Part shown: piece by piece, positions 6,572 through 51,486 of the stretch
Position numbering within the stretch: the first letter of the stretch is position 1
How the letters are laid out: the number at the start of each line of letters is the position of its first letter
Source of the DNA: Leishmania martiniquensis
Lineage: Eukaryota; Euglenozoa; Kinetoplastea; Trypanosomatida; Trypanosomatidae
DNA: 64,000 bases
NCBI RefSeq assembly: GCF_017916325.1
Contig: NC_090165.1
Coordinates: forward strand, 1,148,501-1,212,500
Direction: 5' to 3'
Position numbers and translations under genes: made by a program
Notes under the pieces: generated by a model
The model's input: the letters and a program-made list of their open reading frames with translations, nothing else
The model's database searches: none
Told to the model about the DNA's origin: nothing

Positions 6572-7586
6572 ACGCATCAGCAGATGCATACGCTCACAAC
6601 CACAGCTTACCCGCTGCCGGTACCGCCACCGTCACGCCCAGGCCGTGCGCCTGGCGGCCACTTGCTGGCCTCCCCCTTCGGCTGCGCGGTGTGCCGCCTG
6701 CCCCAGGCGGGCCTGAGCAAGTGAGCTGCACGCCGTCGTCCAGGCGGGGGCCCGCCTCCACGGTCCTGCCCCAGGGTGCGGCAGGCCAGCTCCCTCGCAG
6801 CCCCCGCGCCCTGCCTGCGCGCCGCCGTCCGCCCTCGGTCCCCTCAAGCCGCGGCACCCCACGACACGCTGGCGGGAGCTTCTCGCGTGCCGGGCTGCAG
6901 CGCCCAACTGTCCTGTTCGCGGCGCCCTCGGCACGCTGCCGGGCCCCCGCACGCGCCGCGGGAGGCGGGACGCTGCCATGGCCCAGCGGCAGCCAGGGGC
7001 GCTCCGCCTCCACCGATGTCCGCACGCCTCTGACAGCAGAGGGTGCGCCACGCGCAAGGGGCCCCTATACCTTCGCCCTGATGGAGCGCAGAGAAGCACC
7101 AATAGACACCCGCCGCGGTCGACTCGTGCGGCACACGTGGGAGGTGCACCATAGCACCGCAGCGTGCAAGACCATAGAGCGGAGGCGAGGTCTGAGGCAT
7201 GCGCAGAGCGGTCCGCGAGTCGCCCGTCGCACGTGGGGCGCAAGGCCAGGCTAAGCGCTCTCAAGGCGAAAACAAGCGAAGGCAGCTGCTCTGGCAGGGG
7301 CGGGGGGCACCACAGTGCTATCGCAGTAGCAGGCGGCACACCATACGCGCTGTCTGCTGCCACGGCCAGTCACCCCGCCGCTGCACGAATTCATCGCGAA
7401 GACCGGTGCGCGGACGCAGCTGGGCAGGGGCGGCCTCCTGTCACCCCCTCTGCACAGCACTCAAGCTCCTTGGCATGACACAGTCGCTGCCAAGCAGCTC
7501 TTGTCGTCGCGTGTTGCGATGCACAGGGCGGCTGCGAGGTGGGGAAGGCGGCTCGGCGCCACAGACCGGTAGACAAGTCCATCATC
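6572..7586 (-). repeat. 1015-bp dispersed repeat, copy 1 (inverted partner at 50472-51486)
   Basis: The sequence from 6572 to 7586 is the reverse complement of 51486 down to 50472. Paired positions always sum to 58058, so there is no net insertion or deletion. Two differences were seen: the plus-strand triplets ctc/ctt near 7553 and ggg/gag near 7236. The outer edge at 6574-6587 is a perfect hairpin (GCATC, 4-base loop, GATGC). The element is very GC-rich and lies in the presumed 3' UTR of MNS1. It is given the minus strand because both copies then share the same orientation relative to transcription. It resembles a SIDER-like retroposon in setting and size class, but identity to a known family was not tested. 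Long frames inside it are the same in both copies only because the DNA is the same. Confidence 0.9.
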
Positions 7587-8013
7587 GGTGCAGTCAGCTT
7601 CGGCTCATCTGGCACTGTCGATGGTGCGCGCCTGCGATCTTTGCGCCTGTGCCTTCAGTATTAGCGAGCGCAGGCAAAGGGAAAGGACAGGTGCACGCGG
7701 CGGGCCCGTGACACCACGGCTGGAGCCCACACACAACTTTCAACACCCACAGAGAGGACAAGGCAGATACATGTGCATCCTCCAGGAAGTCTATAAAAGG
7801 GAGCCTCCGCAGCAACGGCAACAGCAGCAGCAGCAGCATTATATGTACATGTGAGGTGGTGCTACCCGCCAGCTGCACCCTCGACGCCTCACCGCCCGCC
7901 ACCACCCACACACCTTCATCTTTAATATGCGGAAATCATCGAGGGAGCGGAGGAGAGGAGGCAAGCACAAAAGCAGCAGATGGTCCCAACAACCACAAAA
8001 GGCGGAGTGTCTG
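7587..8013. other. Presumed 3' UTR of MNS1
   Basis: This segment between the repeat and the MNS1 stop holds a CAG-type trinucleotide run (7813-7838) and no gene. Confidence 0.5.
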
Positions 8014-9354
8014 TTAGTGGGCCCGCGGCGCAGCGCCTGCAGCTCTGATCTGGGGCAAGAATTGTACCTTCTCCTCGTCCCGCATGGCATGTACAGGTGC
8101 GTACGACCCTAGCTTGGGCAGGTGCTCCGCCAGCAGCTGCGCTCGAGCGCGTCGGATATACTCTTGGATCTGCTCCTCTCGCTTGCGGTCCTGCTCCTCT
8201 ACTCTGCGCTCTAGCTCCTTCTCCTGCTCCTTTAGGCGTCGGCGCTCCTCGAGACGCTGTTGCGCTTCCAAGATGTGCTGCTGCTTCATCTGTGCTTGCT
8301 TCTGGCGGTTGAGGGCCTGCAGCTTCACCTCAGCGGCTATCTTATCGATTGTCTCCTGCCGGAAGCGCGCTTCTTCGGCCATCTCCGCTTCTTTGGCGAG
8401 ACGGCGCTGCTCGATGAGGTGCTGGTTTTCGCGCGTCACTGCGGCTGCCATGCGCTCACGGCTTGCCCGCTCTGCCTCGATCAACATCTGCTCCTTCGTC
8501 AGCCGCTCCTCCTCGTAGTACTCCTGAAGCAGTGTCTCCAGTTCACGCTTCTTGGCCTCCTCCTCGGCGATGCGGCGGCCCTGCTCTTCCAGTATGCGGG
8601 CCTTCACGGCGCCCCGCTCGCGCGCCATCTTCTCGTTCATCTCTCGTCTACGGGCTTGCTCGGCGAGGTAGGCGCGAATCGCTGCCTCTTCCTTGGCCTC
8701 CCGCTCCTGCTCTGCCTTCTTCAAAGAAGCGCGGATGCGGCAGAACTCGTCTTTCTCCTCCATGATCCGACGCTGCCGGTCGCGACGGGCAAGGGTTTCT
8801 AGAAAGTCTTGCTCCTGCACTCGGGCCACAACGGCGTCTACAGCGATGCGCTCCTGTTCACGCTGTTTCGCTTCCTCAACGGCGGCCAAGCGGTGCTGGC
8901 GGATGATCTCTAGCTGCTCTGCCTGATGGCGACGAAAGCGCTCCATTTCTTCCTGGTGCTTCTTCTCCTCCTCTGCCTTGGCAAGCCGATCCTGCTCAGC
9001 GAGGTAATCCATGTACATCCGCCGCTCCTCCGCCTCCTGTGCCTTTGCGGCGCTGCGGTCAGTCACCTGTTCTGCACGACTCTTGCGGAGATAAGCGCCC
9101 TTTAGCTGACTCTCTAGCGACCGAACTTCCGGGTAGTCACACACCAGCTGCAGCATCTTCGCGTCCTTCATCTCGAGTCGCTGCTGCTCAGCCAGCTCGG
9201 CGGCGAGGGCCTCGTCAACGGCCGCTGTCTTTAACTTGGCTGAGCGCATGGCAGCAAAGTTTTCCTCCTCTTTCTGTCGAGCAAGCTCGGCTTGCACCGC
9301 TTTGTAGCGGTTCACGCGGCGCAGCCGCTCCGCTCGTGCTTCGCTAAAGCTCAT
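8014..9354 (-). CDS. MNS1: MNS1 family axonemal protein (TPH domain)
   Basis: This 446-residue protein is nearly all charged coiled coil (Glu, Arg, Ala, Gln), as in the trichohyalin/plectin homology (TPH) domain family. Three features point to MNS1 (meiosis-specific nuclear structural protein 1) rather than generic coiled coil: the N-terminal MSFSEARAERLRRVNRY, the segment VRSLESQLKGAYLRKSRAEQ near residues 76-95, and a C-terminal LLAEHLPKLGSYAP. These resemble the corresponding human segments as I recall them. MNS1 proteins line the inside of axonemal doublet microtubules, so a flagellar location is expected. The length is close to the vertebrate protein (about 495). The start is an ATG at 9354-9352 with no nearby alternative. 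The presumed 3' UTR carries the 1015-bp repeat. Confidence 0.82.
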   Translation of the reverse strand: MSFSEARAERLRRVNRYKAVQAELARQKEEENFAAMRSAKLKTAAVDEALAAELAEQQRLEMKDAKMLQLVCDYPEVRSLESQLKGAYLRKSRAEQVTDRSAAKAQEAEERRMYMDYLAEQDRLAKAEEEKKHQEEMERFRRHQAEQLEIIRQHRLAAVEEAKQREQERIAVDAVVARVQEQDFLETLARRDRQRRIMEEKDEFCRIRASLKKAEQEREAKEEAAIRAYLAEQARRREMNEKMARERGAVKARILEEQGRRIAEEEAKKRELETLLQEYYEEERLTKEQMLIEAERASRERMAAAVTRENQHLIEQRRLAKEAEMAEEARFRQETIDKIAAEVKLQALNRQKQAQMKQQHILEAQQRLEERRRLKEQEKELERRVEEQDRKREEQIQEYIRRARAQLLAEHLPKLGSYAPVHAMRDEEKVQFLPQIRAAGAAPRAH

Positions 9355-10019: not shown

Positions 10020-10456
10020 TTCCTTCTCTGCCGCACAACGTGAATTCAGCTCCGCTCCGAAGCCAGCGCACCAGACGCACATCGCGTCACTCAAGGCAGC
10101 GGCAGGCGCGTCTTTCCGCAAGGCGCCGACTCCGTCACCGCAGCGCAGCCCCTGGCCCAGCGCCCGCTCGCCCCTCGCTGTGTACGCCTCGCCCCACACC
10201 CCAGTACGCCGGCAGCCACGCCGCGCATCCCTCTCGAGGTGGCGCAGGCTCCCCGCACCGACAGGCAGCGAGGGCCGCTTGGGATACGCTCGAGCGACGC
10301 CCACACGCTGCCCCGTCATGCGGATCGTGCAAGCGGCTTCACTGCCGCAGGTCGCTCCGACCCCGCCCCTCCTAGCACCCGGCCGCCGGCATCAGCAGCG
10401 CGATGCGCTGCTCTGACCCCCCCCGCCCTACGGCGCAGCTGCCTGGCCCTGCGTCC
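10020..10456 (-). repeat. 437-bp direct repeat, copy 1
   Basis: 10020-10456 matches 13744-14182 in the same orientation (offset 3724). The differences seen are a C-run two bases shorter here (8 against 10 near 10417-10424) and one A/G change near 10437. Flanking sequences differ immediately outside both ends. Read on the minus strand, the element ends in the purine-rich GCAGAGAAGGAA, which could be a decayed A-rich tail of a retroposon. That suggests an orientation matching transcription. SIDER-type identity is an inference. Confidence 0.9.
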
Positions 10457-11906
10457 TCACCGACACGCCACGCACCGAGGGGTGCCGCATGGGAGAGAAA
10501 TGAGAGAACTTCAGCAGCCACAAAGCCGCCGGGCATGACGGGCGTCGATCGACAAAAACAGAAAAGCGCCCGGAAAGGGATTCGGTCGCAAGCCAAGTGC
10601 CATCATGTCATAAGAGAGAGAGAACGGGCACACTTACACAAACAGAAACACAAGCACTCCAAAGAAGGGGCCGTCGCTGCCGCAGGGCTCCTCCCATGCG
10701 AAAGGGGAGGTGAACGCGTCCCCCTCAACACACACGAGTTCACATCGGCCGTCCACGCATGAGAGCTACTGATCGAATCCATGTTGCGGCTCCTACGCTC
10801 GAGGCGCGCTTCAGCGGCGGACGGCCGGGGGCCTGAGAGGTGGTGCCACTCCCGTTGAAGCTGTACAGAAAACATCCCCCTCCCTTCCTTCTGCAGAAGC
10901 GCCACCTCATTCTACCGGCCACAGACTCATGCACTGACGATGACGAAGTAGCGTCGGCTTCTTTTCTGTTCACCTCCTAATGTGTGTGCGCCTGTCCAAC
11001 CTCTGTACTTCGCAGCGTTGTAAGAACCGGAAGAGAGCAAAGCGCGACACGCGGAAGAAAGGAGGAGGCGGTCGGGCTAGAGAGAGGGATCAAAGAGAGA
11101 GAGAGAGCTGAGAGGTGAGAGGTGGGAAAGCAAACGCACCGAGCGAAGCACACAAACACTTAGCGGAGCGCTGGAGAAGCAACGAGAATATGATGAAACC
11201 ACCCGCGCTGCAGAGAAAAACTCCTGCTGGGAAACGAAAAAAGACATGATGGCAAGGGAAGGAGGAGCGGAGTCGAGTGGCCGCGGGAAGTGAGTGGAGA
11301 GCTGCATGAGACCTGGATGGTGGTGTGGATTGGGCGTGAAGAAGAAAAGGGAGCACGATGCCGAGTGCTGGCACCAGACACACACAGGTCCACACGGGAA
11401 CCCTACCCCAATTCTCATGCATAGCGTATGTATCCCTGTGAGGCTCGGTCTAAAGCGATGAGGAAAGAGGCCACTGTGTCTAGCTGGAGCACGGTCAGCT
11501 GGCGTGCAGAAAAGAAGACGGAGCAGGCATGCTTAGATGAGCTAGATAAAGGGCCGCAGGAATACAGGGGAAGCGAGCAGAAGAGGAGCTGCCGGTTCGC
11601 CGCCGCGGCAACGTCGAAAAGTGAAATAGAAAGAAACAGGGTAACATAAAAGGGGCGAGGGACAGGGCCGGTAGCGGACGGCGCCGTCCGACCACCTCGC
11701 GTACGCCAAAAGCTGCGTAGCGGCTCTCCCCCCCCCTTGCGCTGAGACCGGGTCACGCAAGGGTGCCAATCACCATGCTGAGACGCGGAGCGGCTAGTGA
11801 AGGGCAGTGAAGAAGGGCACAGAGAAAGAGAGACAGCAGAGGATCTCGCCTGTGGAGGCCGTGCGTAGATCCTTTTTTTTTTTTGCAGCCCGGCACCCCC
11901 TCCTCT
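10457..11906. other. Intergenic region between repeat copy 1 and the RRM gene
   Basis: No gene is supported. It contains a GA-rich run at about 11079-11107 and a T-run at 11873-11884, and is presumed 3' UTR of the RRM gene. Confidence 0.5.
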
Positions 11907-12332
11907 CTAGTAGCCCGCAGGGTGGTGATCGAGGATAATCTCACTCTCAGAGGGCGGCGGCTGCACCCCAACACGTTGGTAGTTGCTATCGAACTCGGCC
12001 AACGCGAGCGGTCGAGGTGGCCGCTTCTCCTCTGCTGCCTTCATGAACTCCTCCCCGACTTGATGGCCGTAAGCAGAGATGGAGGGACTACTCTTTGAGT
12101 AAAGCACAATCATCGGCAAATTTCGACACGTCTGGTAGTGGCAGTGCAGCGCCGCTATAGCAGCATCGGCGTTATCGACGGTGTCGTATGTCACCTCTGC
12201 GTAGCGATGCGGGCCGTCACCAAACAACTCCACGTGATGCACGGTTCCGTATGCAGAGAAGAGCCGCTCAAGGTATTGAACATTTGCGATCGACGATAAG
12301 TTCGACACAAAGAGAGTGGCTTTACCGTCCAT
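11907..12332 (-). CDS. Small RRM RNA-binding protein
   Basis: The 141-residue protein starts at the ATG at 12332-12330 (MDGKATLFVSNLSS). The frame remains open for 115 codons upstream, but that part is low-complexity leader sequence and begins far from any RRM-like start. One RNA recognition motif occupies about residues 5-80. RNP2 is LFVSNL, and RNP1 is degenerate (HRYAEVTY in place of the usual GFGFV-type octamer), so RNA contacts may be unusual. The tail, residues 85-141, is Pro- and Glu-rich. Trypanosomatids control gene expression mainly after transcription and carry many such proteins, so a role in mRNA fate is likely but unproven. The gene is bracketed by the 437-bp direct repeats. Confidence 0.82.
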   Translation of the reverse strand: MDGKATLFVSNLSSIANVQYLERLFSAYGTVHHVELFGDGPHRYAEVTYDTVDNADAAIAALHCHYQTCRNLPMIVLYSKSSPSISAYGHQVGEEFMKAAEEKRPPRPLALAEFDSNYQRVGVQPPPSESEIILDHHPAGY

Positions 12333-13743
12333 TCTGGTAACAGAGCAGAGGGAGGAAGGCTGCGGCTCTTTTTTTCCTCGTGCCGCCAACGGGCTATACG
12401 GTACTCGAGAGAGAACGAGATTTACGCAGAGCCGGCACTCCTTCTCCTCGGGGATGACTCGGCGCCCTAGTACAGATATCAGCGTGGGCCTCCAGAGGGC
12501 GCACGACAGCACCGCCGATGTAAGTAGGCAGACGATATGCGTAGATGGACTATGCGGGTCGAACTGTTGCTTCAACGTAGGCACAGCAGTGCAGTCATGT
12601 AAAAGCGAGGAGGAGGGGAAAAAGGAGGTGGAGGTGGAAGCGATGGTATACAAATATATGTAACCGAGACACGGCATGAGTAGAGTGCAGCAGAGAGAGA
12701 GAGATCAGCTCTCAGGAATGGCCCCTCACGTACACGGCAAGTCGACAGTATGGAAGCCTTTGAGTACGTATCAGCAACGTTTCGAGCAGGAGAGAAGGCG
12801 CCCTCTGTTTCGAAAGAGAGAGCGTCCGTCGACTAAACTGCCGTTTAGTGAGGAATCTGGCTCTCAAAGACGCAAACGTGTACCCGCGATCTATTGCTAC
12901 TCTGTGCTTCAAGTTTAAGCTTCTCGCCTCACGCCTGGTGTGCTGGAGCAGCTCGCCACCACGCCCCTCGGCCCTTTCGCGGGATGAGCGGGACTGACAG
13001 GCAAAAAGAGGAGACTTGTAAGAGGCGAAATCGACCTTGCCGCTCTGTGCAGTCGGATAGAATGCGCTCGGTGCGTATCAGAGAGAGTCGGCTTCTCTAC
13101 ATGCTCGCTCTCGTATGCGAGTCCTAGAAGCACACCCGCCGCGCCATCCGTCCCTCGGGCCCCTTGAAGCCTATCGCCATCTCCAGGCACCACAACTCGA
13201 CACACTCACGCACCAGCAGAGCGGGCACGTGAGAGAAATGCTCCGCCGTCTCCTCAAGAGCACCCGAGGAAAAGCGACGGCTAACCCGCTATCAGAGCGA
13301 GGACGGTTTTTCTGACGGGAAGAAGACAGGCTAAATACGTATGCCGACTTTTTCGAGCTGCGAATGCCGCTGCTATCTAATCGGGCTCGATCGTTCACTT
13401 GCAGTACAGTCAGCGTCCCCTTTTCTTCCTCTTCTCACTGCTGCACTTCATTACCGATGAACTTCTTGAGATGCGTCGCTGCCTGTAAGTCCCCGAGGCA
13501 CACAACGAATAAAGGGGCATCTTCGCGCCTCGCCATCCCAACACAGGAGAAGGGGCACGACTTTTTCGAGCGCTTACACGCGCCCAATAGGGTGGCACGA
13601 GAAAGGCAAAGCCGAGGATGGCTGCCATAAGCGCCACAGTAAGAGCAACAACCATGGGAATTGAGGGCGGGGGGGCGCAGCCTTATCGCAGAACTGCTAT
13701 GAGCAGGGTTGTGGAGTGCATGCTCCGCGTTCCCGTCAGCACG
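12333..13743. other. Intergenic region upstream of the RRM gene
   Basis: No gene is seen. The part nearest the gene on the transcribed strand carries pyrimidine tracts (12598-12650 on the minus strand), suitable for trans-splicing of the RRM transcript. Confidence 0.5.
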
Positions 13744-14182
13744 TTCCTTCTCTGCCGCACAACGTGAATTCAGCTCCGCTCCGAAGCCAGCGCACCAGAC
13801 GCACATCGCGTCACTCAAGGCAGCGGCAGGCGCGTCTTTCCGCAAGGCGCCGACTCCGTCACCGCAGCGCAGCCCCTGGCCCAGCGCCCGCTCGCCCCTC
13901 GCTGTGTACGCCTCGCCCCACACCCCAGTACGCCGGCAGCCACGCCGCGCATCCCTCTCGAGGTGGCGCAGGCTCCCCGCACCGACAGGCAGCGAGGGCC
14001 GCTTGGGATACGCTCGAGCGACGCCCACACGCTGCCCCGTCATGCGGATCGTGCAAGCGGCTTCACTGCCGCAGGTCGCTCCGACCCCGCCCCTCCTAGC
14101 ACCCGGCCGCCGGCATCAGCAGCGCGATGCGCTGCTCTGACCCCCCCCCCGCCCTACGGCGCGGCTGCCTGGCCCTGCGTCC
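13744..14182 (-). repeat. 439-bp direct repeat, copy 2
   Basis: This is the second copy of the element at 10020-10456, nearly identical, in the same orientation, 3.7 kb away. It ends 236 bp before the HMG-CoA reductase stop and so probably lies in that gene's 3' UTR or just past it. Confidence 0.9.
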
Positions 14183-14418
14183 GCACTGACATGACGCGCG
14201 GAGGTGTTCCCCTCCGTCATCGAGGGCCCCGTTGCTGCCAGCAGAAATGAAAAAGGGCACACAGCGCACGCTCAGAGACACGCACGCACGGTTACGTAGC
14301 CGCACATTCAGGCATAGGGAAGCGCCTAGCAGCCCTGCTCTATGCACGAGTCACCCCTCCCTGAAGCCACTTCATCCCAGCTGTGCAGAAGCAGCAAAGC
14401 AGCTCCCTGCAAGTCATC

Positions 14419-18284: not shown

Positions 18285-20930
18285 TCACAGGGAAGGTGGA
18301 CGCTGATGCGAAGGGGCCTCCGCTTCCCTGGTTGCGACACCATCACCAAAGTACCGTATCTTCGTCGAGGGAAACCGAACGCGTTGCCGTGGGGACGCTT
18401 TTTGAATCGCTGCCGTGTCTTGCGGGACGCTGTACTGAGACACTGCCACTGCCGAGGGTGGATCGGCGGCTGCGGTAGTTGGCGGGAGCTCGAGCGAAGG
18501 TGCAGAAATGACGGATTCTGCCACCTGAGAAGCCGCCGTGATAGTTGACGGCATCGGCGCTGGCGTTGCTGCCGCGATGGGCATACCGGTCTCCGTGGGC
18601 ATTGGCAGGCGTTGGTGCACTGCTGGGCTCAGTAGCACCTTGGTTCCCATTGCCTCTGCAGAAAGCATGGGGCCTTTGCTTGACGGGGCGTATGGAAACG
18701 GTGGACGGAGTGGTGGCATGCGGGTAGGTTGATTGTAGACGCTCGCTCGCACCCATGCCGATACAGCCACGCGCTCGTCTCGCGCCAGCTGCGCTTCCTT
18801 CGAGGCCTCCAGCCGCTGAAAGCTGAAAGGATCGAACTCCGCCCCAGACTCAGCGGCTCGCATCATTGCCGCCAAGCATGGCTGGCTGATTGGAGAGGCC
18901 CCACAGACGCTGATGAGACGAGTGAGCCGCTGGTATACCTCACCAACTTTGACAGCGTGCTCTTCTTGTGCTGCTTCCAGCTGGGCCGAGAGTGCGTTGC
19001 TGTCACGAAGGACTCGCGTCAAGGAGGCTTGGAGAGATTCGATCTGAGCGGTAAGGTGGCGCTCATCCGCCTCGTTCGCAGCCCAGTTCGCCTGCACGCG
19101 GACCTGCAGCGCCGCTGCCTCCGCCTTACATCGCTGAGCGTTCACCGCCATGTCGTGTGCAATAACGTCACCTTCGTTAGCAGCGTCTGCAAGTCCCTCC
19201 TCCACGCCCTGCGCCATGCCTTGCTCGTAGGCTTCCGCCGCAACCCTCTCCTTTGCTTCTTCGTACTGCCGATCACGAGCGGAGAGCTCTTCGATGAGGT
19301 CCTGCTTGAGCTGCCGTAGCTCAACTGCTGCGTGATCACGCTCTTCCTGAATAAGTTGAGCGTAGTGCGTACTGTCGCTCTCTGTCTTTGCTCTGATTTG
19401 CTGCGTGAGTGACTCCTTGAGCTGTGTATCGTCTTGGAGACTGCGCAGCTCTTCCTGCAAGGAAACCAACTTCGACTCTAACAGCTTACGCCTGGCTACC
19501 TCTTCGCTGTAGTTCTCCTCGAGCGTCCGCAACTTCTCTTCGTTCACCTGGTGATCGCCGACTGAGACGTTCAGTCGTATCTTCTCCTCTTTCAAGCGTA
19601 CGTCGTTCGCGCGAAGGACATTTTTGAGCGCGTGGAGGTGTCGGCTCGAGTCGCCCACCTCACCATCGAGCCGAACAATTCTCGCTTGCGTGTCTGAAAG
19701 CTGCCTGTCTAGCTCGATGCGTTCACTGGCGCTATCATCGAATGCAGCCTTCGCCTCCGCGCCCAAGGTCTTCGTCGTCTGAAGAAATTTGGCAAGTCGG
19801 GCCTCCAGCTCTCGATTTCGTGCCTCTGTTTCGCCAATGACGGCTCTTTTGTCTTCGACAGCGTTTTTCTTGGCGTCGCTCTCCGCAAGAAGGTGCTCGA
19901 CCGAGTACTCGATTTGTGCGCTTGTCAAGCTTCGTGCTCCAGACTGACGCTCATGACGCTTCAGGCTGGCACAGACACCGTCCAGCTCGCGCCGAGTGTC
20001 ACGCAGTTGCTCAGTGAGAGTAAACACCTGATCACGCAGCCTGTCCACTAGCAAAAACTGTTCCTTGCTGAAGCCATTCGTCGCCATTGCCGAGTAGCCA
20101 TCTACACAGTCTGAAGCAACGACAAGAGACCGCGTCAGCGAACCTGTAGCCGTCCTAGTGTCACCTTCTATCAAAAGCGGCTGACCTTTATCCTTGGCGG
20201 CCCTGTTGGGCTGAGATTTCAATGAGGCTTGCTGATCTTTGCGACGAGCGATCTCGACATAAAAGCACATGTTGACGTTTGGGCCGCGTCCACGTTTTGC
20301 CTTTGCAGGGACTACAATGAGGCGCTGTCCTCCTTCCCTCATGCCTACCGTCATCCCCTCGAAGCCTCGCATCATCGCTGTCACACATTGGTGACTAGCT
20401 GGCACCGTGAACTTCACCGCATCCTCGCTCTCCTTCTCCAGAAGGCTGCCAAGGCGCGGTAGTCCAGTGCTGGAGTCACTACACTGAACTACCCATACAC
20501 GGTAAAAAGCTTTTACGAGATCGCCAACAAAGATCTGCTTGTTCTCCTTGCCCTTGACAACATCGCACGAAAGGATACTGTCCGTCGGCTCACCAGCCGC
20601 ACCAAACATCGCCACAGTAACCTGCGCAGAAAATTCGATGGCGGCATCCTCTGTGGTAAACTGCAAAGACCAATAGTGACTATTTTCGTCGCGAAAGGTG
20701 ACGTAAGAACCGTCACGAGTGATATGAGCGCCAGCATCGTTGCTTGCCAATACAGCCGCTGTGCAGATGTATTTATTGTCACGATAGCAGCCGAGCTTGA
20801 AAGTTGTGTCGCTTGCCTTGCTCCCAATGAGAGCACAGTTCACCGGCCCATACTCGTCATACGCCCCGGTGGACTCAGAAAACGAGTGCAGCACTGCGTT
20901 CACAACACATGTGAAGTCAACAGTCGACAT
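18285..20930 (-). CDS. FKBP15/WAFL-like protein: WH1-like, FKBP-type and long coiled coil
   Basis: The 881-residue protein starts at the ATG at 20930-20928; an ATA codon earlier in the frame is not used. Residues 1-115 look like a WH1/EVH1-type module. Residues about 122-228 resemble an FKBP peptidyl-prolyl isomerase domain, most clearly in GFEGMTVGMREGGQRLIVVP at 189-208. Residues about 305-670 are a long coiled coil rich in Glu, Gln and Arg, and the last 140 residues are Pro-, Ala- and Ser-rich. This order matches FKBP15 (WAFL) of animals, an endosome- and actin-associated protein. The usual aromatic FKBP active-site residues cannot be confirmed by eye, so isomerase activity is uncertain. 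The coiled coil suggests a scaffold role. Confidence 0.72.
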   Translation of the reverse strand: MSTVDFTCVVNAVLHSFSESTGAYDEYGPVNCALIGSKASDTTFKLGCYRDNKYICTAAVLASNDAGAHITRDGSYVTFRDENSHYWSLQFTTEDAAIEFSAQVTVAMFGAAGEPTDSILSCDVVKGKENKQIFVGDLVKAFYRVWVVQCSDSSTGLPRLGSLLEKESEDAVKFTVPASHQCVTAMMRGFEGMTVGMREGGQRLIVVPAKAKRGRGPNVNMCFYVEIARRKDQQASLKSQPNRAAKDKGQPLLIEGDTRTATGSLTRSLVVASDCVDGYSAMATNGFSKEQFLLVDRLRDQVFTLTEQLRDTRRELDGVCASLKRHERQSGARSLTSAQIEYSVEHLLAESDAKKNAVEDKRAVIGETEARNRELEARLAKFLQTTKTLGAEAKAAFDDSASERIELDRQLSDTQARIVRLDGEVGDSSRHLHALKNVLRANDVRLKEEKIRLNVSVGDHQVNEEKLRTLEENYSEEVARRKLLESKLVSLQEELRSLQDDTQLKESLTQQIRAKTESDSTHYAQLIQEERDHAAVELRQLKQDLIEELSARDRQYEEAKERVAAEAYEQGMAQGVEEGLADAANEGDVIAHDMAVNAQRCKAEAAALQVRVQANWAANEADERHLTAQIESLQASLTRVLRDSNALSAQLEAAQEEHAVKVGEVYQRLTRLISVCGASPISQPCLAAMMRAAESGAEFDPFSFQRLEASKEAQLARDERVAVSAWVRASVYNQPTRMPPLRPPFPYAPSSKGPMLSAEAMGTKVLLSPAVHQRLPMPTETGMPIAAATPAPMPSTITAASQVAESVISAPSLELPPTTAAADPPSAVAVSQYSVPQDTAAIQKASPRQRVRFPSTKIRYFGDGVATREAEAPSHQRPPSL

Positions 20931-21372
20931 GAGTACATATGGAACCTCTAACAAAGTCAAAAGGACGCGCACAAATATCATCTATGGAAAAAATATGGAG
21001 AGGCAGTTACCGAGAAAGCGCGGATCAACTTGAAAAGTAAACATCCGAAAGCCAGAGCCCTGGCAATGAGCTCATCTGAAGCCATTACAATCACCTGAGA
21101 TGTGTGAAGCACGAGATGAATTCGACAGTAGTTCGAGAAACGCCAGGATAGTACGGAGTCAACAAAGCACTTGCCTCACTACAGCCTGAAATGCGGCAAC
21201 AACTCAGTGTTCCGAGTAACTCTGGCAATGGCTTGCATGCCGACTGCTCGTTTTTTTTTCTTTTATGCGCTTCTCTGATAAACGCCATGCAGTTCTTCAG
21301 CCAACGCGAAGCACCCGTGGGGCTCGTCACACGGAGAAATCATGTGCAGACTCTTTTTCGACCGAAGCTCCA
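20931..21372. other. Short intergenic region, start of the AT-richer zone
   Basis: It separates the FKBP15-like gene from the 414-residue gene. It is visibly richer in A and T than DNA to the left, and no gene is seen. Confidence 0.5.
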
Positions 21373-22617: not shown

Positions 22618-23214
22618 AATATTGCCTTTTCAATGTTTACAAAGTAACGGTATACGAAACCTAATACCTATGTGTGGCATAATGACTTCGCATCGTTCGC
22701 GTCGAAGACAAAAGATATGGCATATGACCAAGCAAAGAAAGACGGGATCCTAGTACTTAGATAATTCGTGACAGACCAAAATCATATGCAACCCCCTATG
22801 TTCCAAACAGACATCTCTCTCTGCATCATCTGCAATTTCGCGCGTGAGGAAGCAGCGTCGTCGCTCGGAACTCTCGTTATGCTTGAAAAGCAAGGAGAAG
22901 CATTTACACAGCTCGGGACGGACTCATTTCTTCAGGATCGCATTCCTCTTCGTCGTCATTGTCACTTGCTCCATGCCTTCTACAGTACATGTCTAACTAA
23001 TAAGGCAACGTTTCAGACTCCGATAGACCTCTCAAAGAAGGGCACCGATCGAAGAGCAAATACAAACACTATCGACAGATCGGCTTCCTAAGGCTTGCAA
23101 AAGACGGCATCACTCATGTGGCAACTCTTTCGGAAACTTGATATGAAGGTGCTCCAAGATCCAGCCCACAGGTGCCTCAATCACGAAGGAAACTAGGAAA
23201 GCGGTGAGAGCAGT
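22618..23214. other. Intergenic, AT-richer, no gene
   Basis: No coding region is supported. A 107-codon frame at 22768-23091 lies on the plus strand, opposite to the transcription unit, and looks non-coding. Confidence 0.5.
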
Positions 23215-23640: not shown

Positions 23641-24049
23641 CTTTGATAACCCAAAAAAATAGTGAAGGCACAGTATTCAATGCAGGGTCTCCGGCCTATG
23701 AGCGAGCTACGGTGAGAGATGATTAGGATGAAAGAGAAAAAACACGTACAGGTAATGAGGAGAGCAGAAGGTTGCAGTATTCGCTCATGCCCATATTTAT
23801 GCGACTAGAATCCTGCCGACAGCGTTACAGGTGGATAGAAAAATGTGCAGAGCTGAGTCCGCTCATGCAACTGCTCTTCAGACACTTCTGCAGGAAAGTG
23901 GAAGGCAATCGAGTCAACAAAAGAATTGCATCTATACACGAGACAAACACCTTTATCCGTTCAAGTCTTCGTTTTTTTTTTTTTGAATGAAGCAAACCTC
24001 GTCAACGGTGCTGTGAATAACGCCACAGGAAAAAGTTCACTGCTGCAGC
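23641..24049. other. Intergenic, AT-richer, no gene
   Basis: A T-run at 23971-23983 on the plus strand is the only notable feature, and no gene is seen. Confidence 0.5.
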
Positions 24050-24337
24050 TTAGCGATCCTCGTCATCAGCATCAAAAATACCTTCGCCTAGCTTCCACCA
24101 CGCCAGTGTGTAGTACATATGGAGGTCGTGGTGCTTTTCAGCTTCGTTCAGGTCGCTCCAGCCCTCTCCGGCAAGGGGCCAGTGATACATGGAGCGATAA
24201 GTGGAGAAGTACCATGGGATGTTCTTGTCTAGCTTCTTCACAAAACCAGGTTCTTTCATCCCATGGGGAAACTCACCTCTGGTGGTGAGCTCCAGATTGG
24301 CATATTTCATGCACCAGCGGCTAGATTTTCGAATCAT
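24050..24337 (-). CDS. Small aromatic-rich protein next to the strand switch, possibly mitochondrial
   Basis: The 95-residue protein starts MIRKSSRWCMKYANLELTTR and is unusually rich in Trp, Tyr and His (for example KNIPWYFSTYRSMYHWPLAG and LHMYYTLAWWKLGEG). It ends acidic (DADDEDR). There is no classical membrane helix. Composition and place beside the 141-residue protein suggest a respiratory-complex accessory subunit or similar small mitochondrial protein, but no family is recognised. It is the first minus-strand gene after the divergent strand switch, so it would be promoter-proximal in the left unit. The gene is short and the case for coding rests on the clean ATG, the amino acid pattern and the strand. 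Confidence 0.6.
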   Translation of the reverse strand: MIRKSSRWCMKYANLELTTRGEFPHGMKEPGFVKKLDKNIPWYFSTYRSMYHWPLAGEGWSDLNEAEKHHDLHMYYTLAWWKLGEGIFDADDEDR

Positions 24338-26889
24338 TGAAGAGAATGCTACCTATTTGCAGGTTCGAAAGTTGTGAGTGAAGGATGTAGAAAGGAGAAA
24401 AGGAGGTAAAGAAATGGTATCGAGAGCTTCAATAGAGTCGAGCGGGATAAAAGCCGACTCAAGGGGAAGCGACAAGTGCGGCATCATTTTTTCTTACCTT
24501 GGGCACACACTACGGGTATCCCAACGAGGTGGCAACACCAATCCCTGGTGTTTGCTCTGTTTAAAATCCTTTGAGTGCTAAACAAGGTTATGACGGTGCA
24601 GGAAAAGAGTAAGTGCAATTTCTGTTTTTAGGTGCATCCTGAAGGGGTCGGAAAGTAAGGAGGACAACGATCCAATAACAAAAATACGGAAATATCCACT
24701 GGCGTTTAGAGAAAGATTCGCAGCATCGTGATGCTTCCCGTCACAGTCAGCAGCATACGGTGCGCGACGTCAATGGGGAATGGAAGTCGTTAAGAGGGGG
24801 CTTTGGCCACAATTGTGGCTGTTCGCCCATGACCCCGTCAAAGGAGCTGGTCGAAAAAGCTGCCGATAAGAAAGCCGGTGGAGCACAGCTACCCCCCCCT
24901 CCATCGGAACTGACTTCACAGCATGATTGCTTTCAGGTACCAAGGAGCTCTTCTACAATAGATCATGCACGCGCAGAAGCCACTAAACCTTTTGTCGATC
25001 CCTTACCATACGCCTTGCAGGGAGGGGGGAACAACTTCCACTGTTTCCTTGCTTTTTCGAAGCTGGACGGTGAAGCGTGGCGTCTGCTGCCAGCTGCTTC
25101 GGCTTATCGAGATCGACCAATAGATAAACCACTGTCATCTAATTGTGAATATCCGGAAGAGAAACCTTGCCAATTTCAAGGTCAGGGAGTGCAGCTTTTC
25201 GAGCCTCAAAATGAGGACTTCTTTCTCGTTGAATTCGGTGTAACTTTACTATCTCGTCTTCGGCGACAAATACTTTAACCTTTTTCAATCTCTGCAGTGT
25301 TTGTTTTAATAGTGGGCTGGCGATGCGTGTTGTAAGATTGCGTCTCCCACTTGGCGAAAACCAAGGAAATTTCGAGTTGCATTAGAGCTCGGCGAACTTA
25401 CAGACGAGTTGCCGGTGCCCTAGAAGAGAGGAAATTACCGGAGGCTTTTTTCTTCGATCGGACAGTTGATGCCTTGTATTCATACGGGTGGTCCTTTTGG
25501 GAAGCGCTCGAAGTTTGCAGACTCACTTTTTCGGGTTCTCATTGTGAAAGGAGTGGTGCTGTAGACGCGTTCATGTTTGAAAATTACAGGGTTGCCCATG
25601 CGATTATCAGATGCTCTTATTGTTTCCTTTTTTCATGGGGAGAGGTCTCGTCTTGCTGAATTCAGTGCTTCATATATGTTAGGAGGCAATCACTATTGAA
25701 GTGAATTCTCACTTTGACCTTCAAAACAACTTGAGCTCTCATATTACCCCAGCCACGCCAACTCACCTCTCTTCTTCAGATGGCCTGCGGACAGAAACAA
25801 AGGTGTGGACGATTACCTTAAGGCTTTGAATTTCTGCTATCTATTCTTGGCGCAAGCTTTACTGTGCCAGTGAGTCAGAGAAAAAAGATACCTCATGGAC
25901 GACTATCTCCGTTTCAGCCTTTGATATGGTCCTCTTGCTTTTTTCCTTCGTGTCCATAAAGTGTATCAGTGAAAGACATAATGACCACCGAAGTCTTGAG
26001 TAGTTTTTTCTTTGATGAAAGGGGAAACAACCTATTCTTTGCGCAGTGCGCTTCATGCTTTCGTAGGCTACTCTGCTGAGTGTGTCAGAGCCAGTAGCTG
26101 AATTGCGGTGTGCTGCTGCTTCCTAGGAAGGTATGCATGAAGTAGCGATCGAGTCCGAAACCACTCCCCGAACCTGTGCGCGCATTGCGCGGTGTACATA
26201 TATTTTCATTACTTCATTGATAGGTGTCTTTTTGACGTTAATTATGCACCATGGCAGAGTTTTCGATGCTCAACGAGATCAGCGTGCACAAATGTGAGTA
26301 TCTAATGATGACCTGTGCAGCCCTATATCAAGTCAAGTTTCAGTTCTAGCAGCAAGTCTTCTTGTGATGCGTCGACTAAGCCCTCCTTTGAGAATCATAC
26401 AGTGATATGGTTTCCGAAAGGATGCGCTTTCAGGCCTCACAGTCTTGCGAAAAGCGTCTTCTTTGTCCATCTGTTTTGCTTAGCAACTGAAGTCGACAAA
26501 TTTTAGGGACTCTTCCGAAAACTTTTTTGTGACGATACCTCATGTGTTAACTGACTTCTCGAGATACGCCGCGCTGAGAATATTATCTGGAGCTGTTCCT
26601 ATTCGTGTAGCTACGTTTTTTCAAGCTTGACTGCCTTTCTAGTCCACCCTCCCTCAGAACTCCTTTGATTTCCGGAGATCCTGTTCGTGGGCGGGAACCT
26701 TCTTAAGTAGAGTGTGCGTGTCACTCCACGAGGGGGTTTTGTACAAAAATCTACTGAAATTCTTTTCTAATTCAGTGCCGATGTAACAAACTTTGCGAGG
26801 ATTCTTCTGAGTAAACATGACGCCGACTATGATGACTGATTCTCACAGTTCTCATACGTTTGCTGCCCATGACAGCCGAAAAGAGCTGC

Positions 26890-26910
26890 TATATATATAT
26901 ATATATATAT
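26890..26910. repeat. TA dinucleotide repeat in the strand switch
   Basis: An uninterrupted TA run of 21 bases lies inside the divergent strand-switch region; it would melt easily and exclude nucleosomes. Confidence 0.9.
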
Positions 26911-27668
26911 GTATGCACTTGCTTCCAGGCAGTCACCTTCCAGTCCTGCTATGTCATATCTGACGAAGCTTAAACGACTACTTGAAGCCACCGTGTTAGT
27001 TGTCTGAGGGCTTTTTGTTTTTGATGTGCAAGTCTCTGCGGCGACTTCTATTTGGTGCCATGAGGGCAACTAGACAACAAGGCAGCAGAATAGCGCATTT
27101 GGTCTTCCAGTTCTTTGTGATTTAATTTTCATGTTATTCTGTTAAAATGTTACACTGCTCTCTTCTGATGTGATGACTTATGCTTGCTTCCTAGTGAAGT
27201 CGTGCGGGGCGGTTGCGCTGTCGCGCACGTTGTGAAGGACGCTGGACCTTTACTGAGTGCTTTCTCGTTTCTGCCGAAATGCGACCCTTGTCATTTAGAA
27301 TGATCTTGAACTCTGCGCAGCCACAATTCAGCGCGAGTGGCAAAGGAGAGAGACAAAGCGGAATATGCATAAAAATCGACTCTAGGGTGCTACGCGCAGA
27401 TGTTAGTGAAAACTTATGAGCGACTTCTAGTGCCCTCTTTTTCAATCTTTCGCCTCTGGTGGTCGTGGCTCTTTAGATGCTTGCTGTGCTTATGGTGTCA
27501 TGTTTTGCTTGCCGAGGCTTCCCGGGAGCGCTGTGCTGGATGCATAGGGAAGGCCTTTTCGTTTTATTTTGCGCCTTCATCTACTCTCCTGCACACTCTA
27601 CTTCTATTTTCTCTCATTGCATTTTTTCTAGGGTTGCGTATGATTTATGCATGAGCGACTCTTCTATA

Positions 27669-27698
27669 CATATATATATAGAGAGAGGGAGAGAGAGT
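27669..27698. repeat. TA run followed by GA run
   Basis: A short TA repeat is joined directly to a GA-rich repeat, about 520 bp before the first plus-strand gene. Confidence 0.8.
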
Positions 27699-28214
27699 GC
27701 ATAGTCGTGTACTCTGCTGCTCTTCTTTCCTCTCCCTATCTTTGATGTCGAGGTTCTCAAAAGGTATGGATATTATTCTTGGGTTTCGTTCTGCATGCAC
27801 AGCTCTGAATGCTGATGTAGGGGAAAAAAGAAAGTGAGCTAGCTCAGTGCTGGCGCCATCTTCACTCGTTGAGAAAAAGGTTCGCTATTTTTTCTGAGAC
27901 TGATGGCGTCACGCAGTATACTTCCTTGCTTTTGTGAAAGCTAATTGGGCTCTTTGATATTGCCATATCCTGTATGTTTTTTTTCTCGCAGGTGCGTGCG
28001 CGTGCAGCTGATTTATTATTCTGCAGTACTTTGTGCTTTCACGTATGTGCCGTGTGCGTCCTGTTTTGCCTTTCATTCGGTTACTTGGAGCTTAGCATGC
28101 AACATCATCTCACTTTCTTTCCTCATACTCTGTTCTACCCCGCGGCTTTTCCGATTTTGACATTTTGACGTCTACACCCTGCGACACAATCAGGCTCTAC
28201 ACACCGATGGATTC

Positions 28215-45114: not shown

Positions 45115-46395
45115 ATGAAGGTTATCCTCAAAACCATTACTGGGAAGCAGCACGAGGTGGATGTGGAGGCCACCTCGACCATCCTCGACGTGAAGAAGTT
45201 GCTGGAGGACGAGTACGAGCCAGCGTCGCTGCGGTTGTGCTTCAACGGTGCCGTGCTGGAGGACAGCAAGATCCTGGCGGATGCGGGGGTCAAGGACAAC
45301 GACTCGCTTGTGCTCGCTGGGCGCAAGCGAAAGATCCCAAAGCCGTCGGCGGAGCCGCCAAAGAAGGAGGTGGCTTCAGAGAGCAGCGCACCGCCTTCAG
45401 CTGCTTCGGCGCCTCCCCCGGCGATTTCGGCACCTGCTTCCACCACAGCATCTCTTGCCGCCTCAGAAGCCACCCCTCACCCGGCGGCTCCCACCCTCTC
45501 CGCTGTTCCTACAGCTACTCCAGCTACTGCCGCTCCTACGGCCCCCGCGGCCGCTGCTATTCCTGCCGTGCCTGCATCCTCGGCAACGAGCTTGTACGGG
45601 GTGGCCCCCAATTTGATCGACGAGGTGGCGTCAATGGGCTTCGAAGACCGCAATCAAATTGCTTTGGCGTTGCGCGCCGCCTTCATGAACGTCGAGCGCG
45701 CCGTGGAGTACCTCTTCGACGGCATCCCTCCCCACCTTGTGGAGGAGTTTACGCACCATACTGTTGCTTCCGTACCCTCAGTTGCACCGGGAGCGTCGAT
45801 TCCGTCTGCCTCTTCTGCAACCGCAGCCGCGACGCTGTCGGCCTCTACCGCATCCACCGCCGCGCCATCCACTGCTGAGTCCGAGATGCGCGCAGCCCTC
45901 TCGCGCATTCCGCAGTTCGACGAGATTCGCGTTCTGTACAACCAAAACACGGATACGCTGCCGGTAGTGATGCAGCAGATTGCGATGCGGCACCCAGCTG
46001 TTTATGAGCAGATCGAGCGCGATCCGGAGACATTCCTCTCCATCATGGGTGAGGGCGGGCAGCCGGGTACCACGAGCGCGCCGTCCGGGTCCGTCGCGTC
46101 GCCGACGGGACAGGCCGCCACAGGCGCGGCGGAAGAAGGTAGCTTTCTGAATCAGCTGCAGGGTGGACTTGAGCTGACGGCCGAGGATCGCACTGCGGTG
46201 CAGCAGCTTGTCGAGTTGGGAGGTGGCATGTGGGACGAGCAGAGCGCTGTGCTGGTTTACCTTGCTACCCAGCGAAATCAGGAGGTGGCGGCGAGTGTCT
46301 TGTTCGAGCACGGCGGCGTCCCGGCGGAGTTGTTGGCGGAAATCGCCACCCAAATGGCCGACGAGGAGGCGGAGGATTATGAGACTGAGCAATGA
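45115..46395 (+). CDS. RAD23: RAD23-like ubiquitin receptor and nucleotide-excision-repair protein
   Basis: The 426-residue protein has the complete RAD23 domain order. An N-terminal ubiquitin-like domain (1-70, starting MKVILKTITGKQHEVDVEAT) is followed by an Ala/Pro/Ser-rich linker, UBA1 at about 163-205 (ASMGFEDRNQIALALRAA), an XPC-binding/STI1 helix pair at about 262-312 (LPVVMQQIAMRHPAVYEQI), and a C-terminal UBA2 at about 355-402. RAD23 carries ubiquitylated proteins to the proteasome and stabilises the damage sensor XPC/Rad4 in DNA repair. The linker is unusually long in Ala-Pro runs. The start is the only plausible ATG. Confidence 0.95.
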   Translation: MKVILKTITGKQHEVDVEATSTILDVKKLLEDEYEPASLRLCFNGAVLEDSKILADAGVKDNDSLVLAGRKRKIPKPSAEPPKKEVASESSAPPSAASAPPPAISAPASTTASLAASEATPHPAAPTLSAVPTATPATAAPTAPAAAAIPAVPASSATSLYGVAPNLIDEVASMGFEDRNQIALALRAAFMNVERAVEYLFDGIPPHLVEEFTHHTVASVPSVAPGASIPSASSATAAATLSASTASTAAPSTAESEMRAALSRIPQFDEIRVLYNQNTDTLPVVMQQIAMRHPAVYEQIERDPETFLSIMGEGGQPGTTSAPSGSVASPTGQAATGAAEEGSFLNQLQGGLELTAEDRTAVQQLVELGGGMWDEQSAVLVYLATQRNQEVAASVLFEHGGVPAELLAEIATQMADEEAEDYETEQ

Positions 46396-47912
46396 CGAGA
46401 ACGAGGGAGAGACAGCTGCTATGGACGCCCTCGAGTGGTGCTCGTTGGGCTGCTGCTTGTACATGTACGCTTTCAACTGGAACTCTTGCTCCTTACGCCT
46501 CTTTCACCTGTCGCCTCTCGCGAACCTTGACTTCCCAGCTGCCCTGCAATGTGAGCCTCCCGCAACTTCGTACTTTATGCGGCGCCGTCGGCGGTTTTGA
46601 CAGAAGTGATTGACTGATGAGCAGTGGGGAGCACGGGCGAGCACAAGCGCTGTGGCGTCCCTTACCGATGCTTTGCCCTCCTCACTTCTCCTGTCGTGCC
46701 GCCTTTTCACTTCTGGGTGCTTTGCCGTTGTGCTTTCCCGAAAGGGTATTGGCGCATCTGTTGGTTCTTGTCGGTGGTTTATTGCGTCGACGCGTATGTT
46801 TTTGCGCGTGTGTTTGTGAGGTGCACACCGTCCACTCCTGGCACAGCGCCGCCAGGCACGTATTCGATCCCGTTGGTCGCCTGGTTCTTTTTTTTTCCCT
46901 TTTCGACCACAGACGCCGGCGTGTGCTCCTGCCACGCCTGCTTACCCCTTTCCCTCTTTCCTTCTCCTTTTTGATAGCGGAGGACACACCTCAGAGAGCG
47001 GCAGCACGTGACGGTGGCCGTGCAGTGCCCCACTCCGCAGGGAAGTTAGGCGCTCCCTTTCCCTGCCCATCCCGGAGCCGCTCCCGATGGCTGCAGGAAC
47101 GGACGCTCAGGGCGCGTGGAGGCCGGGCCGACGTACCGCCACTGATGCCGGCGGTCAGCTCGTGGATGGCGGTGCGTCGGAGCCGCCTGCCGCCGCGAGC
47201 GCGCGTGCGCCACCCTCATGGTAGCCACGGCATCCTCTGCGACTGCAACGGGTATCCCGCCCGGCCCTCGCGCGGCCCACTGGTGGGGTGTGCTAGCTGA
47301 GCCGCTCCAAAGGGAGGAGAGGGGGTGCAGCAGGTGGCGAGCAGCGGCGAGGCGAGGGTAGGCCGAGTATGAGGCAGGAGCCGTGCTCCGATGACCGAGC
47401 CGGCGCACTGCCGTATCGCGTGCCGGCTGCTTCCTCGCACTGCGAGGCGGTCAGGGCCTGCGCGACGGACTGAGAGGAGTACAAAGTAAGGCTATCATTG
47501 TATGACTGAAGGTGACCTGAAAACACGCAGCGCCTGTCTGCAACGCTGTTTTCTTTCCATTTTAGTACTCGTTCTTTGCATATGACGCAAGCTGACGTCC
47601 TTTTTTTGAAAATTGTCGACAGAGGCGCGATACGGCCATTCAGGGAGAGCGTGTTGGTGCAGCCTACGGAATGCTTCGGCTGATGGTCAGGGCGGCGGCG
47701 CATTCTTTGCTTTCCTGCTCGGCCCTGATAGATACGAGGCGCCATTTCTCATGAAGAGTCGAGGGAAGGAGATGAAGAAGCAACAGTAACTGAAAGCGGC
47801 AGCGAATGTGTGTCCAAAGAATGCTGGTATGTAAGTGAATACAGTGTGGGTTAGCCAACAGTTCTCCGACGTCTAACGTGCGGCTTCTTGCCGGGGGGGG
47901 GTAAATAGCATT
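46396..47912. other. Presumed 3' UTR of RAD23 with a GC-rich, retroposon-like segment
   Basis: The first 600 bases are pyrimidine-rich. 46990-47480 is abruptly GC-rich and mixed in composition, similar in style to the dispersed repeats elsewhere in the window, and may be a degenerate SIDER-type element. No close partner was found in the window. No gene is supported. Confidence 0.4.
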
Positions 47913-48540: not shown

Positions 48541-48596
48541 ACACGGGCCTGGTGGCCGGCCCTGAGGTGCGCTGAGATGCGCACATTATAGCGCAG

Positions 48597-50247: not shown

Positions 50248-50471
50248 GGGCGCAGCGTCTCTGCACCGTCGATGATTGTGAGGTGATCCTCAGCACCGTG
50301 CCAGCGTCTAGCGAAGCCCTTCTCTTTCCCTCCTTGTCTTTCCAAGCTATGACGCGGCGTGGGGTAGGCCGTGCTGAGCAGAGTACCTCCCCTGTGAAGG
50401 CATCTCTCTCAAGCTCTATTTTGCAGCTCCTTTTGTTTTCGCGTTATCGTCTCTGTCCCTTCGGCTTCATG

Positions 50472-51486
50472 GATGATGGACTTGTCTACCGGTCTGTGGC
50501 GCCAAGCCGCCTTCCCCACCTCGCAGCCGCCCTGTGCATCGCAACACGCGACGACAAGAGCTGCTTGGCAGCGACTGTGTCATGCCAAGGAGCTTGAGTG
50601 CTGTGCAGAGGGGGTGACAGGAGGCCGCCCCTGCCCAGCTGCGTCCGCGCACCGGTCTTCGCGATGAATTCGTGCAGCGGCGGGGTGACTGGCCGTGGCA
50701 GCAGACAGCGCGTATGGTGTGCCGCCTGCTACTGCGATAGCACTGTGGTGCCCCCCGCCCCTGCCAGAGCAGCTGCCTTCGCTTGTTTTCGCCTTGAGAG
50801 CGCTTAGCCTGGCCTTGCGCTCCACGTGCGACGGGCGACTCGCGGACCGCTCTGCGCATGCCTCAGACCTCGCCTCCGCTCTATGGTCTTGCACGCTGCG
50901 GTGCTATGGTGCACCTCCCACGTGTGCCGCACGAGTCGACCGCGGCGGGTGTCTATTGGTGCTTCTCTGCGCTCCATCAGGGCGAAGGTATAGGGGCCCC
51001 TTGCGCGTGGCGCACCCTCTGCTGTCAGAGGCGTGCGGACATCGGTGGAGGCGGAGCGCCCCTGGCTGCCGCTGGGCCATGGCAGCGTCCCGCCTCCCGC
51101 GGCGCGTGCGGGGGCCCGGCAGCGTGCCGAGGGCGCCGCGAACAGGACAGTTGGGCGCTGCAGCCCGGCACGCGAGAAGCTCCCGCCAGCGTGTCGTGGG
51201 GTGCCGCGGCTTGAGGGGACCGAGGGCGGACGGCGGCGCGCAGGCAGGGCGCGGGGGCTGCGAGGGAGCTGGCCTGCCGCACCCTGGGGCAGGACCGTGG
51301 AGGCGGGCCCCCGCCTGGACGACGGCGTGCAGCTCACTTGCTCAGGCCCGCCTGGGGCAGGCGGCACACCGCGCAGCCGAAGGGGGAGGCCAGCAAGTGG
51401 CCGCCAGGCGCACGGCCTGGGCGTGACGGTGGCGGTACCGGCAGCGGGTAAGCTGTGGTTGTGAGCGTATGCATCTGCTGATGCGT
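50472..51486 (+). repeat. 1015-bp dispersed repeat, copy 2 (inverted partner at 6572-7586)
   Basis: This is the reverse complement of copy 1, with two differences seen over 1015 bp. It begins 224 bp after the permease pseudogene and ends in the hairpin at 51471-51484. Relative to transcription its orientation is the same as copy 1, as expected for an element spread or selected in 3' UTRs. Confidence 0.9.

What the first reader, a model, noticed from the sequence alone, without database searches (positions are those of the whole stretch)
6572..51486. Near-identical 1015-bp inverted repeats straddle the divergent strand switch
The two copies (6572-7586 and 50472-51486) pair with a constant sum of 58058 and differ at two positions seen. 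They sit on opposite arms of the strand switch and face each other. Homologous recombination between them would invert 42.9 kb, yet all genes would still point away from the switch and match the outer flanks, so the flip should not disturb transcription polarity. This could be a chromosome segment able to exist in two orientations. The very high identity means a recent copy event or ongoing gene conversion.
Basis: partly seen in the sequence, partly recalled or inferred. Interest (0 to 1): 0.8.

Follow-up and report, generated by a model that had tools for sequence, protein, structure and literature searches.

The report
Near-identical inverted repeats in Leishmania chromosome
A Leishmania chromosome carries two almost identical 1-kb non-coding repeats facing each other across a point where gene direction switches; this is one example of a repeat type already known to fuel chromosome rearrangement in these parasites, and nothing here shows that the segment between them actually flips.

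Summary
The pair is real: 6572-7586 and 50472-51486, 1015 bp, two mismatches, inverted, straddling a divergent strand switch. The window lies on a chromosome-30-type contig of a Leishmania, probably subgenus Mundinia. The pair is not unusual there: a 252.5-kb stretch of that contig holds 48 repeat pairs of 0.2-2.5 kb and at least 85% identity, 18 inverted; 13 span this switch, six inverted, seven direct. The element belongs to a mosaic, intergenic, degenerate family with relatives on three other contigs at 73-76% over about 120 bp. In a second, SIDER2-like family, neighbouring copies are mostly near-identical and distant ones about 60% identical, alike for direct and inverted pairs. This fits published Leishmania 'RAG'/SIDER repeats, substrates for linear and circular amplicons and occasionally inversions. 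The window orientation matches conserved gene order at the left junction; the right junction was not testable. Inversion is possible but not evidenced. Preserved polarity is true but follows from geometry. Reads crossing one 1-kb repeat suffice as a test, but both new junctions must be counted, because a linear amplicon shares one.

The parts
6572..7586 (-). Repeat copy 1 (1015 bp, 71% GC), intergenic: 428 bp after the stop of the CFAP127/MNS1-like gene and 973 bp before the start of the next minus-strand gene
50472..51486 (+). Repeat copy 2, inverted relative to copy 1 but the same sense relative to transcription; 4077 bp after the end of the Rad23-like gene
23641..28214 (.). Divergent strand-switch region between the last minus-strand and first plus-strand gene model
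4652..5599 (-). Conserved 315-aa gene just outside copy 1 (left junction gene L)
8014..9354 (-). CFAP127/MNS1-like axonemal protein just inside copy 1 (gene C)
45115..46395 (+). Rad23-like ubiquitin/XPC-binding/UBA protein, last gene model inside copy 2 (gene R)
52667..53743 (+). MORN1-like gene just outside copy 2 (gene M; start approximate)
10020..10465 (-). Member of a second repeat family (SIDER2-like, about 520 bp), near-identical direct partner at 13744-14191
13744..14191 (-). Partner of 10020-10465, 98.9% identical, direct
46936..47479 (+). Third local repeat group, distantly related to 10020-10465; near-identical copies at C30:1236204-1236747 and C30:1242462-1242959

Best explanation
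The two arms are members of a degenerate, non-coding, dispersed repeat family of the kind called RAG repeats/SIDERs in Leishmania. Shown: the family has a mosaic of copies along this chromosome arm and short distant relatives on other contigs. Inferred: nearby copies are kept near-identical by local ectopic recombination (mainly gene conversion), regardless of orientation. Inferred from published Leishmania work: such inverted pairs are substrates for fold-back annealing that makes linear inverted-duplication amplicons, and rarely for a balanced inversion. Here an inversion should be tolerated because the breakpoints are intergenic and polarity is kept. The orientation in the assembly looks ancestral.
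For: Pair verified. 17 genome matches: 11 on the same contig including the two arms (78-100% over 99-1022 bp), 6 on contigs 16, 23 and 36 (73-76% over about 120 bp). 48 RAG-type pairs in 252.5 kb, 18 inverted, 7 inverted pairs at 99% or more. Patchy identity: tracts at 97-100% next to stretches of the same element at 57-90% (c1 vs L3; left edge of c1 vs L4). Second family, 48 elements: median identity 0.995 at 25 kb or less (n=36), 0.922 at 25-75 kb (n=26), 0.548-0.608 in the three bins beyond on the same contig (n=105 in all), 0.585 between contigs (n=960); within 75 kb direct 0.971 (n=39) and inverted 0.973 (n=23). 0 of 21 repeats examined overlap a gene model; 16 of 21 have the same sense as copy 1 relative to transcription. 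[quoted passage not shown]
Against: No reads, no second isolate and no relative's DNA at this locus could be examined, so conversion is not separated from recent local duplication for this exact pair. Proximity is not enough: pairs of the two different subgroups within 75 kb are only 53-57% identical. The range is not fixed: segments overlapping this family are 99.1-99.9% identical at 107-216 kb. The elements came from two repeat queries plus a profile scan, so they are not a random sample. Extension of the family beyond the 120-bp core on other contigs is weak: the contig-16 and contig-23 profile matches carry a large composition bias (62.2 bits, bias 48.4; 16.9 bits, bias 58.7). The family is not shown to be SIDER, and a 2025 survey lists only 116 INGI copies for L. 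martiniquensis (PMC12278014).
Confidence: 0.7

Rival explanations
1. A true invertible segment: the 42.9 kb exist in both orientations in the population, flipped by homologous recombination between the arms, without transcriptional cost.
For: Geometry and 99.8% identity over 1015 bp. Inversions between L. donovani strains are reported (2 larger than 10 kb, PMC12978572) and a SIDER-flanked inversion of synteny in L. infantum (PMC2689281).
Against: Only one orientation is seen, and it looks ancestral at the left junction. Published junction PCRs at inverted repeats were read as amplicons, with a frequency of about 1e-6 to 1e-7 per cell estimated with one amplified locus as yardstick.
Confidence: 0.12
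2. One recent duplication: a single segmental or retroposition event copied the 1015-bp element to the other arm, with no ongoing exchange.
For: Only two differences in 1015; sharp edges and unrelated flanks at both copies; a 2025 survey suggests segmental duplication for low-divergence copies (PMC12278014).
Against: Other copies share sub-tracts with sharp identity changes inside homologous sequence, and the same local near-identity recurs on many contigs, which a single event does not explain. No target-site duplication seen by eye.
Confidence: 0.25
3. Assembly artefact: one copy is a false duplication.
For: Near-identity; false duplications are a known problem (PMC12278014).
Against: Copies are inverted, have different unique flanks, two differences, and the left one sits in conserved gene order. 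A genome of similar size, not shown to be this one, was built from Nanopore reads with N50 15,090 bp (PMC8210701), which would cross a 1-kb repeat easily.
Confidence: 0.03

Closest known systems
Repeat alignment groups (RAGs) of Leishmania, Ubeda et al. 2014 (PMC4028189)
   Same: Intergenic, 0.2-2.5 kb, at least 85% identity, low copy, on one chromosome, direct and inverted, distances on average 1-100 kb
   Different: The sections read list RAGs for L. major, L. infantum and L. braziliensis only; this pair is the longest inverted pair of the 18 in the stretch compared
SIDER2/SIDER1 degenerate retroposons (PMC2424063, PMC2689281, PMC2323293)
   Same: GC-rich, intergenic, mostly one sense relative to the transcription unit, near copies clustered on one chromosome arm, divergence from relatives elsewhere
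   Different: 1015 bp instead of about 550; signature sequences not shown; no match to the profile of the SIDER2-like family of this genome
Inverted repeats that seed linear amplicons, e.g. around PTR1 (PMC4256157) and RS1-RS3 of M210/M230 (PMC2424063)
   Same: Inverted, near-identical, kilobases to tens of kilobases apart
   Different: No amplicon of this segment was found in the searches made; no drug-resistance locus is implied by these data

Membership tests
Leishmania RAG repeat | length 0.2-2.5 kb and identity of at least 85% on the same chromosome | tested here: met
   1015 bp, 99.8%
Leishmania RAG repeat | non-coding, intergenic | tested here: met
   neither copy overlaps a codon-scored gene model
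Leishmania RAG repeat | low copy, confined to one chromosome at 85% or more | tested here: met
   all 11 matches of 78% or more are on C30; the 6 on other contigs are 73-76% (the tool calls its counts lower bounds)
Leishmania RAG repeat | rearrangement junctions detectable in cells | not testable with these tools
   needs reads or PCR
SIDER2 retroposon | size about 550 bp | tested here: not met
   1015 bp; published exceptions of 981, 983 and 1270 bp exist (PMC2424063)
SIDER2 retroposon | GC-rich, mean 66.5% | tested here: met
   70.8%
SIDER2 retroposon | two tandem 79-nt signatures / HDV-like fold of the first | tested here: inconclusive
   no internal tandem similarity found, but none was found in the SIDER2-like family either, so the test may be too weak; no Rfam ribozyme match; no reference SIDER sequence available
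SIDER2 retroposon | T-rich 5' stretch, A-rich 3' end, target-site duplication | tested here: inconclusive
   flanks read by eye: none clear at copy 1; T-rich flank at copy 2 only
SIDER2 retroposon | mostly same sense as the transcription unit, subfamilies clustered by proximity | tested here: inconclusive
   9 of 11 family pieces share one sense relative to transcription and all close copies lie on one arm, but which strand is the element's own sense strand is unknown
Invertible DNA segment | both orientations occur | not testable with these tools
   one assembly only; conserved gene order at the left junction

The most novel reading that the evidence does not exclude
The 42.9-kb switch segment is a standing inversion polymorphism in this Leishmania, and orientation-blind local gene conversion continually re-identifies such arms across the genome, so that strand-switch segments are freely invertible units of chromosome evolution.
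Probability: 0.1. Interest if true: 0.6.

Novelty: new member of a known kind. Interest (0 to 1): 0.3.

Why it matters
A 2025 survey (PMC12278014, section read) finds zero-divergence copies of transposable elements in Leishmania unexpected, since no active elements remain, suggests duplication by means other than transposition, and says this merits investigation. The local, orientation-independent identity seen here and the mosaic tracts point to ectopic recombination among neighbours, and make that testable by comparing orthologous repeats between isolates. The pair also marks a place where Leishmania could rearrange without breaking transcription units.

Tried and rejected
Rfam at gathering threshold on the window (0 matches) and at E up to 5 on two repeat areas (one match each, E 2.3 and 3.5): chance-level; no ribozyme. 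Reading the repeat as coding: ORFs of 229 and 243 aa overlap it on opposite strands, but no gene model covers it. Reading the 1015-bp family as the same as the SIDER2-like one: the broad profile (53 sequences) gives no significant match to it or to its relatives (best E 5 and 0.47). Right-junction synteny through MORN1: 4728 matches, the 120 listed dominated by unrelated MORN proteins, uninformative. Paper searches that found nothing specific to this locus: 0 papers with at least 4 of Leishmania, strand switch, inversion, inverted repeats, chromosome 30; 16 papers with at least 3 of Leishmania, HMG-CoA reductase, amplicon, chromosome 30; ten listed, none about amplification of this region by its title; 256 papers with at least 4 of 6 terms, 20 listed, mostly not on Leishmania. 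A link to the chromosome's mapped replication origin was dropped: PMC5335649 (passages) places the L. major chromosome-30 origin near LmjF.30.0710/0720, whereas the window's CFAP127 homologue is LPMP_303130 in L. panamensis, so by gene numbering this is another, later switch (inference).

What I saw of each paper. Sections read: PMC4028189, PMC2689281, PMC12278014. Passages only: PMC4256157, PMC2424063, PMC12978572, PMC8421402, PMC8210701, PMC5509151, PMC4035085, PMC2323293, PMC4612428, PMC5335649. A term search without hits: PMC11520807. Others: search listings only.

Changed after checking: confidence in the best explanation was lowered to 0.7, because the distant profile matches are strongly biased in composition and only part of the published identity table fits homogenisation.

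Full report
Observation. The pair is exactly as described: 6572-7586 against 50472-51486, constant sum 58058, 1013 of 1015 positions complementary, mismatches at 7237/50821 and 7554/50504, with identity dropping at once outside. It is the only inverted repeat of 60 bp or more in the window at the seed used. Codon-scored gene models show a divergent switch at 23641-28214, with 7 of 7 minus-strand models between it and copy 1 and 7 of 7 plus-strand models between it and copy 2.

Where it is. The window is G000:C30:1148501-1212500 of a 32.3-Mb, 41-contig genome. The CFAP127/MNS1-like protein is 91% identical to Leishmania enriettii and 85% (over 92% of its length) to L. panamensis LPMP_303130, which points to chromosome 30. 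HMG-CoA reductase, a glutamyl-tRNA synthetase and a MORN1-like gene lie in or beside the segment. Subgenus Mundinia is likely. L. martiniquensis LSCM1 (42 scaffolds, 32,413,670 bp; PMC8210701, table seen) is close in size, but this identification is an inference. Against it: a survey lists only 116 INGI copies for L. martiniquensis (PMC12278014), while repeats are plentiful here.

The repeats in context. The whole-genome search finds 17 matches: 11 on the same contig, the two arms included, and 6 on contigs 16, 23 and 36 at 73-76% over about 120 bp (the tool calls counts lower bounds). Profile matches extend the contig-16 and contig-23 relatives over 627 and about 470 profile positions, but with large composition bias, so only the 120-bp core is firm. 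Self-comparison of C30:1100001-1352500 (252.5 kb, 5 kb of it N) gives 51 pairs of at least 150 bp and 80%; by the published RAG limits (0.2-2.5 kb, 85%) there are 48, 18 inverted and 30 direct, and 13 span this strand switch, 6 inverted and 7 direct. Seven inverted pairs reach 99%. The pair given to me is the longest inverted one (next 575 bp), while direct pairs within those limits reach 1080 bp.

How near-identity may be kept. For a second family (about 520 bp; query copy 72% GC), 48 elements of at least 200 bp (5 shorter rows of 53 dropped) give 1127 of 1128 possible comparisons with at least 150 shared columns. Median identity is 0.995 at 25 kb or less (36 pairs), 0.922 at 25-75 kb (26), 0.548 at 75-150 kb (25), 0.608 at 150-300 kb (48), 0.600 beyond (32) and 0.585 between contigs (960). 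No pair beyond 75 kb reaches 0.95; 36 of 62 within 75 kb do. Direct and inverted neighbours are alike (0.971, 39 pairs; 0.973, 23 pairs). Against a simple distance rule: members of different subgroups within 75 kb stay at 53-57%, and segments overlapping the 1015-bp family are 99.1-99.9% identical at 107-216 kb. In the 1015-bp family, copies share tracts at 97-100% that change abruptly to 57-90% inside sequence that is still homologous (c1 vs L3; left edge of c1 vs L4), the pattern expected from conversion tracts. Subfamilies of near neighbours are published for SIDER2 (PMC2424063, passages). They were defined at 85% or more within L. infantum; in the 11 table rows I saw, the L. major counterparts are 69-87% identical. 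The eight rows of subfamily A (69-83%) fit homogenisation within a genome; the two rows of subfamily B (87%) do not discriminate, nor does the one row of subfamily C (84%) by much.

What it can do. In Leishmania, repeats of this kind form circular amplicons (direct) or linear inverted duplications (inverted); 40 of 48 amplicons tested on chromosome 23 gave PCR products, 15 of them at inverted repeats, and the rearrangement frequency was estimated at about 1e-6 to 1e-7 per cell with one amplified locus as yardstick (PMC4028189). Cells without MRE11 form fewer linear amplicons, and inverted repeats 38 and 53 kb apart were used only once, against more frequent use of pairs 3-10 kb apart (PMC4256157, passages). 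Inversions are on record: one flanked by SIDERs on chromosome 32 (PMC2689281) and two above 10 kb between L. donovani strains (PMC12978572, passages). The present pair is therefore a plausible but not privileged substrate.

Does it flip? Nothing here shows it. The window's left junction thus looks ancestral. The right junction could not be tested. Preserved polarity follows from geometry: 16 of 21 repeats here have the same sense relative to transcription, so pairs across a divergent switch are often inverted.

Testing. Reads need only cross one 1-kb repeat. One new junction alone is ambiguous, because a linear inverted duplication and an inversion share it (my derivation from the published amplicon model); both new junctions and copy number must be scored.

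Membership. The pair meets the RAG criteria that could be tested. SIDER membership is open: size not met, signatures inconclusive, no match to the SIDER2-like profile of this genome. I file it as a RAG-type repeat and not as a SIDER2. That the second family is SIDER2-like rests on size, GC, location and dispersal, not on a comparison with SIDER2 sequences.

Noticed in passing
window 10020-10465 and 13744-14191: Direct repeat, 98.9% over 448 bp, flanking an RRM-protein gene (11907-12677); the geometry for a 3.7-kb circle or deletion. Part of the second family.
   Followed up: partly
G000:C30:1283418-1293647: Tandem duplication with a 5260-bp match at 99.9%.
   Followed up: no
window 20000-28000: GC falls to 45-50% in 2-kb blocks around the strand switch against 53-64% in the other blocks.
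   Followed up: no
   Followed up: no
contigs C8, C15, C16, C17, C25, C27, C28, C29, C32, C33, C34, C35: Relatives of the second repeat family, mostly in local groups whose members are close to identical to each other.
   Followed up: yes
G000:C30:1349970-1351093: Two identical 317-bp direct copies near the contig end, overlapping small gene models.
   Followed up: no
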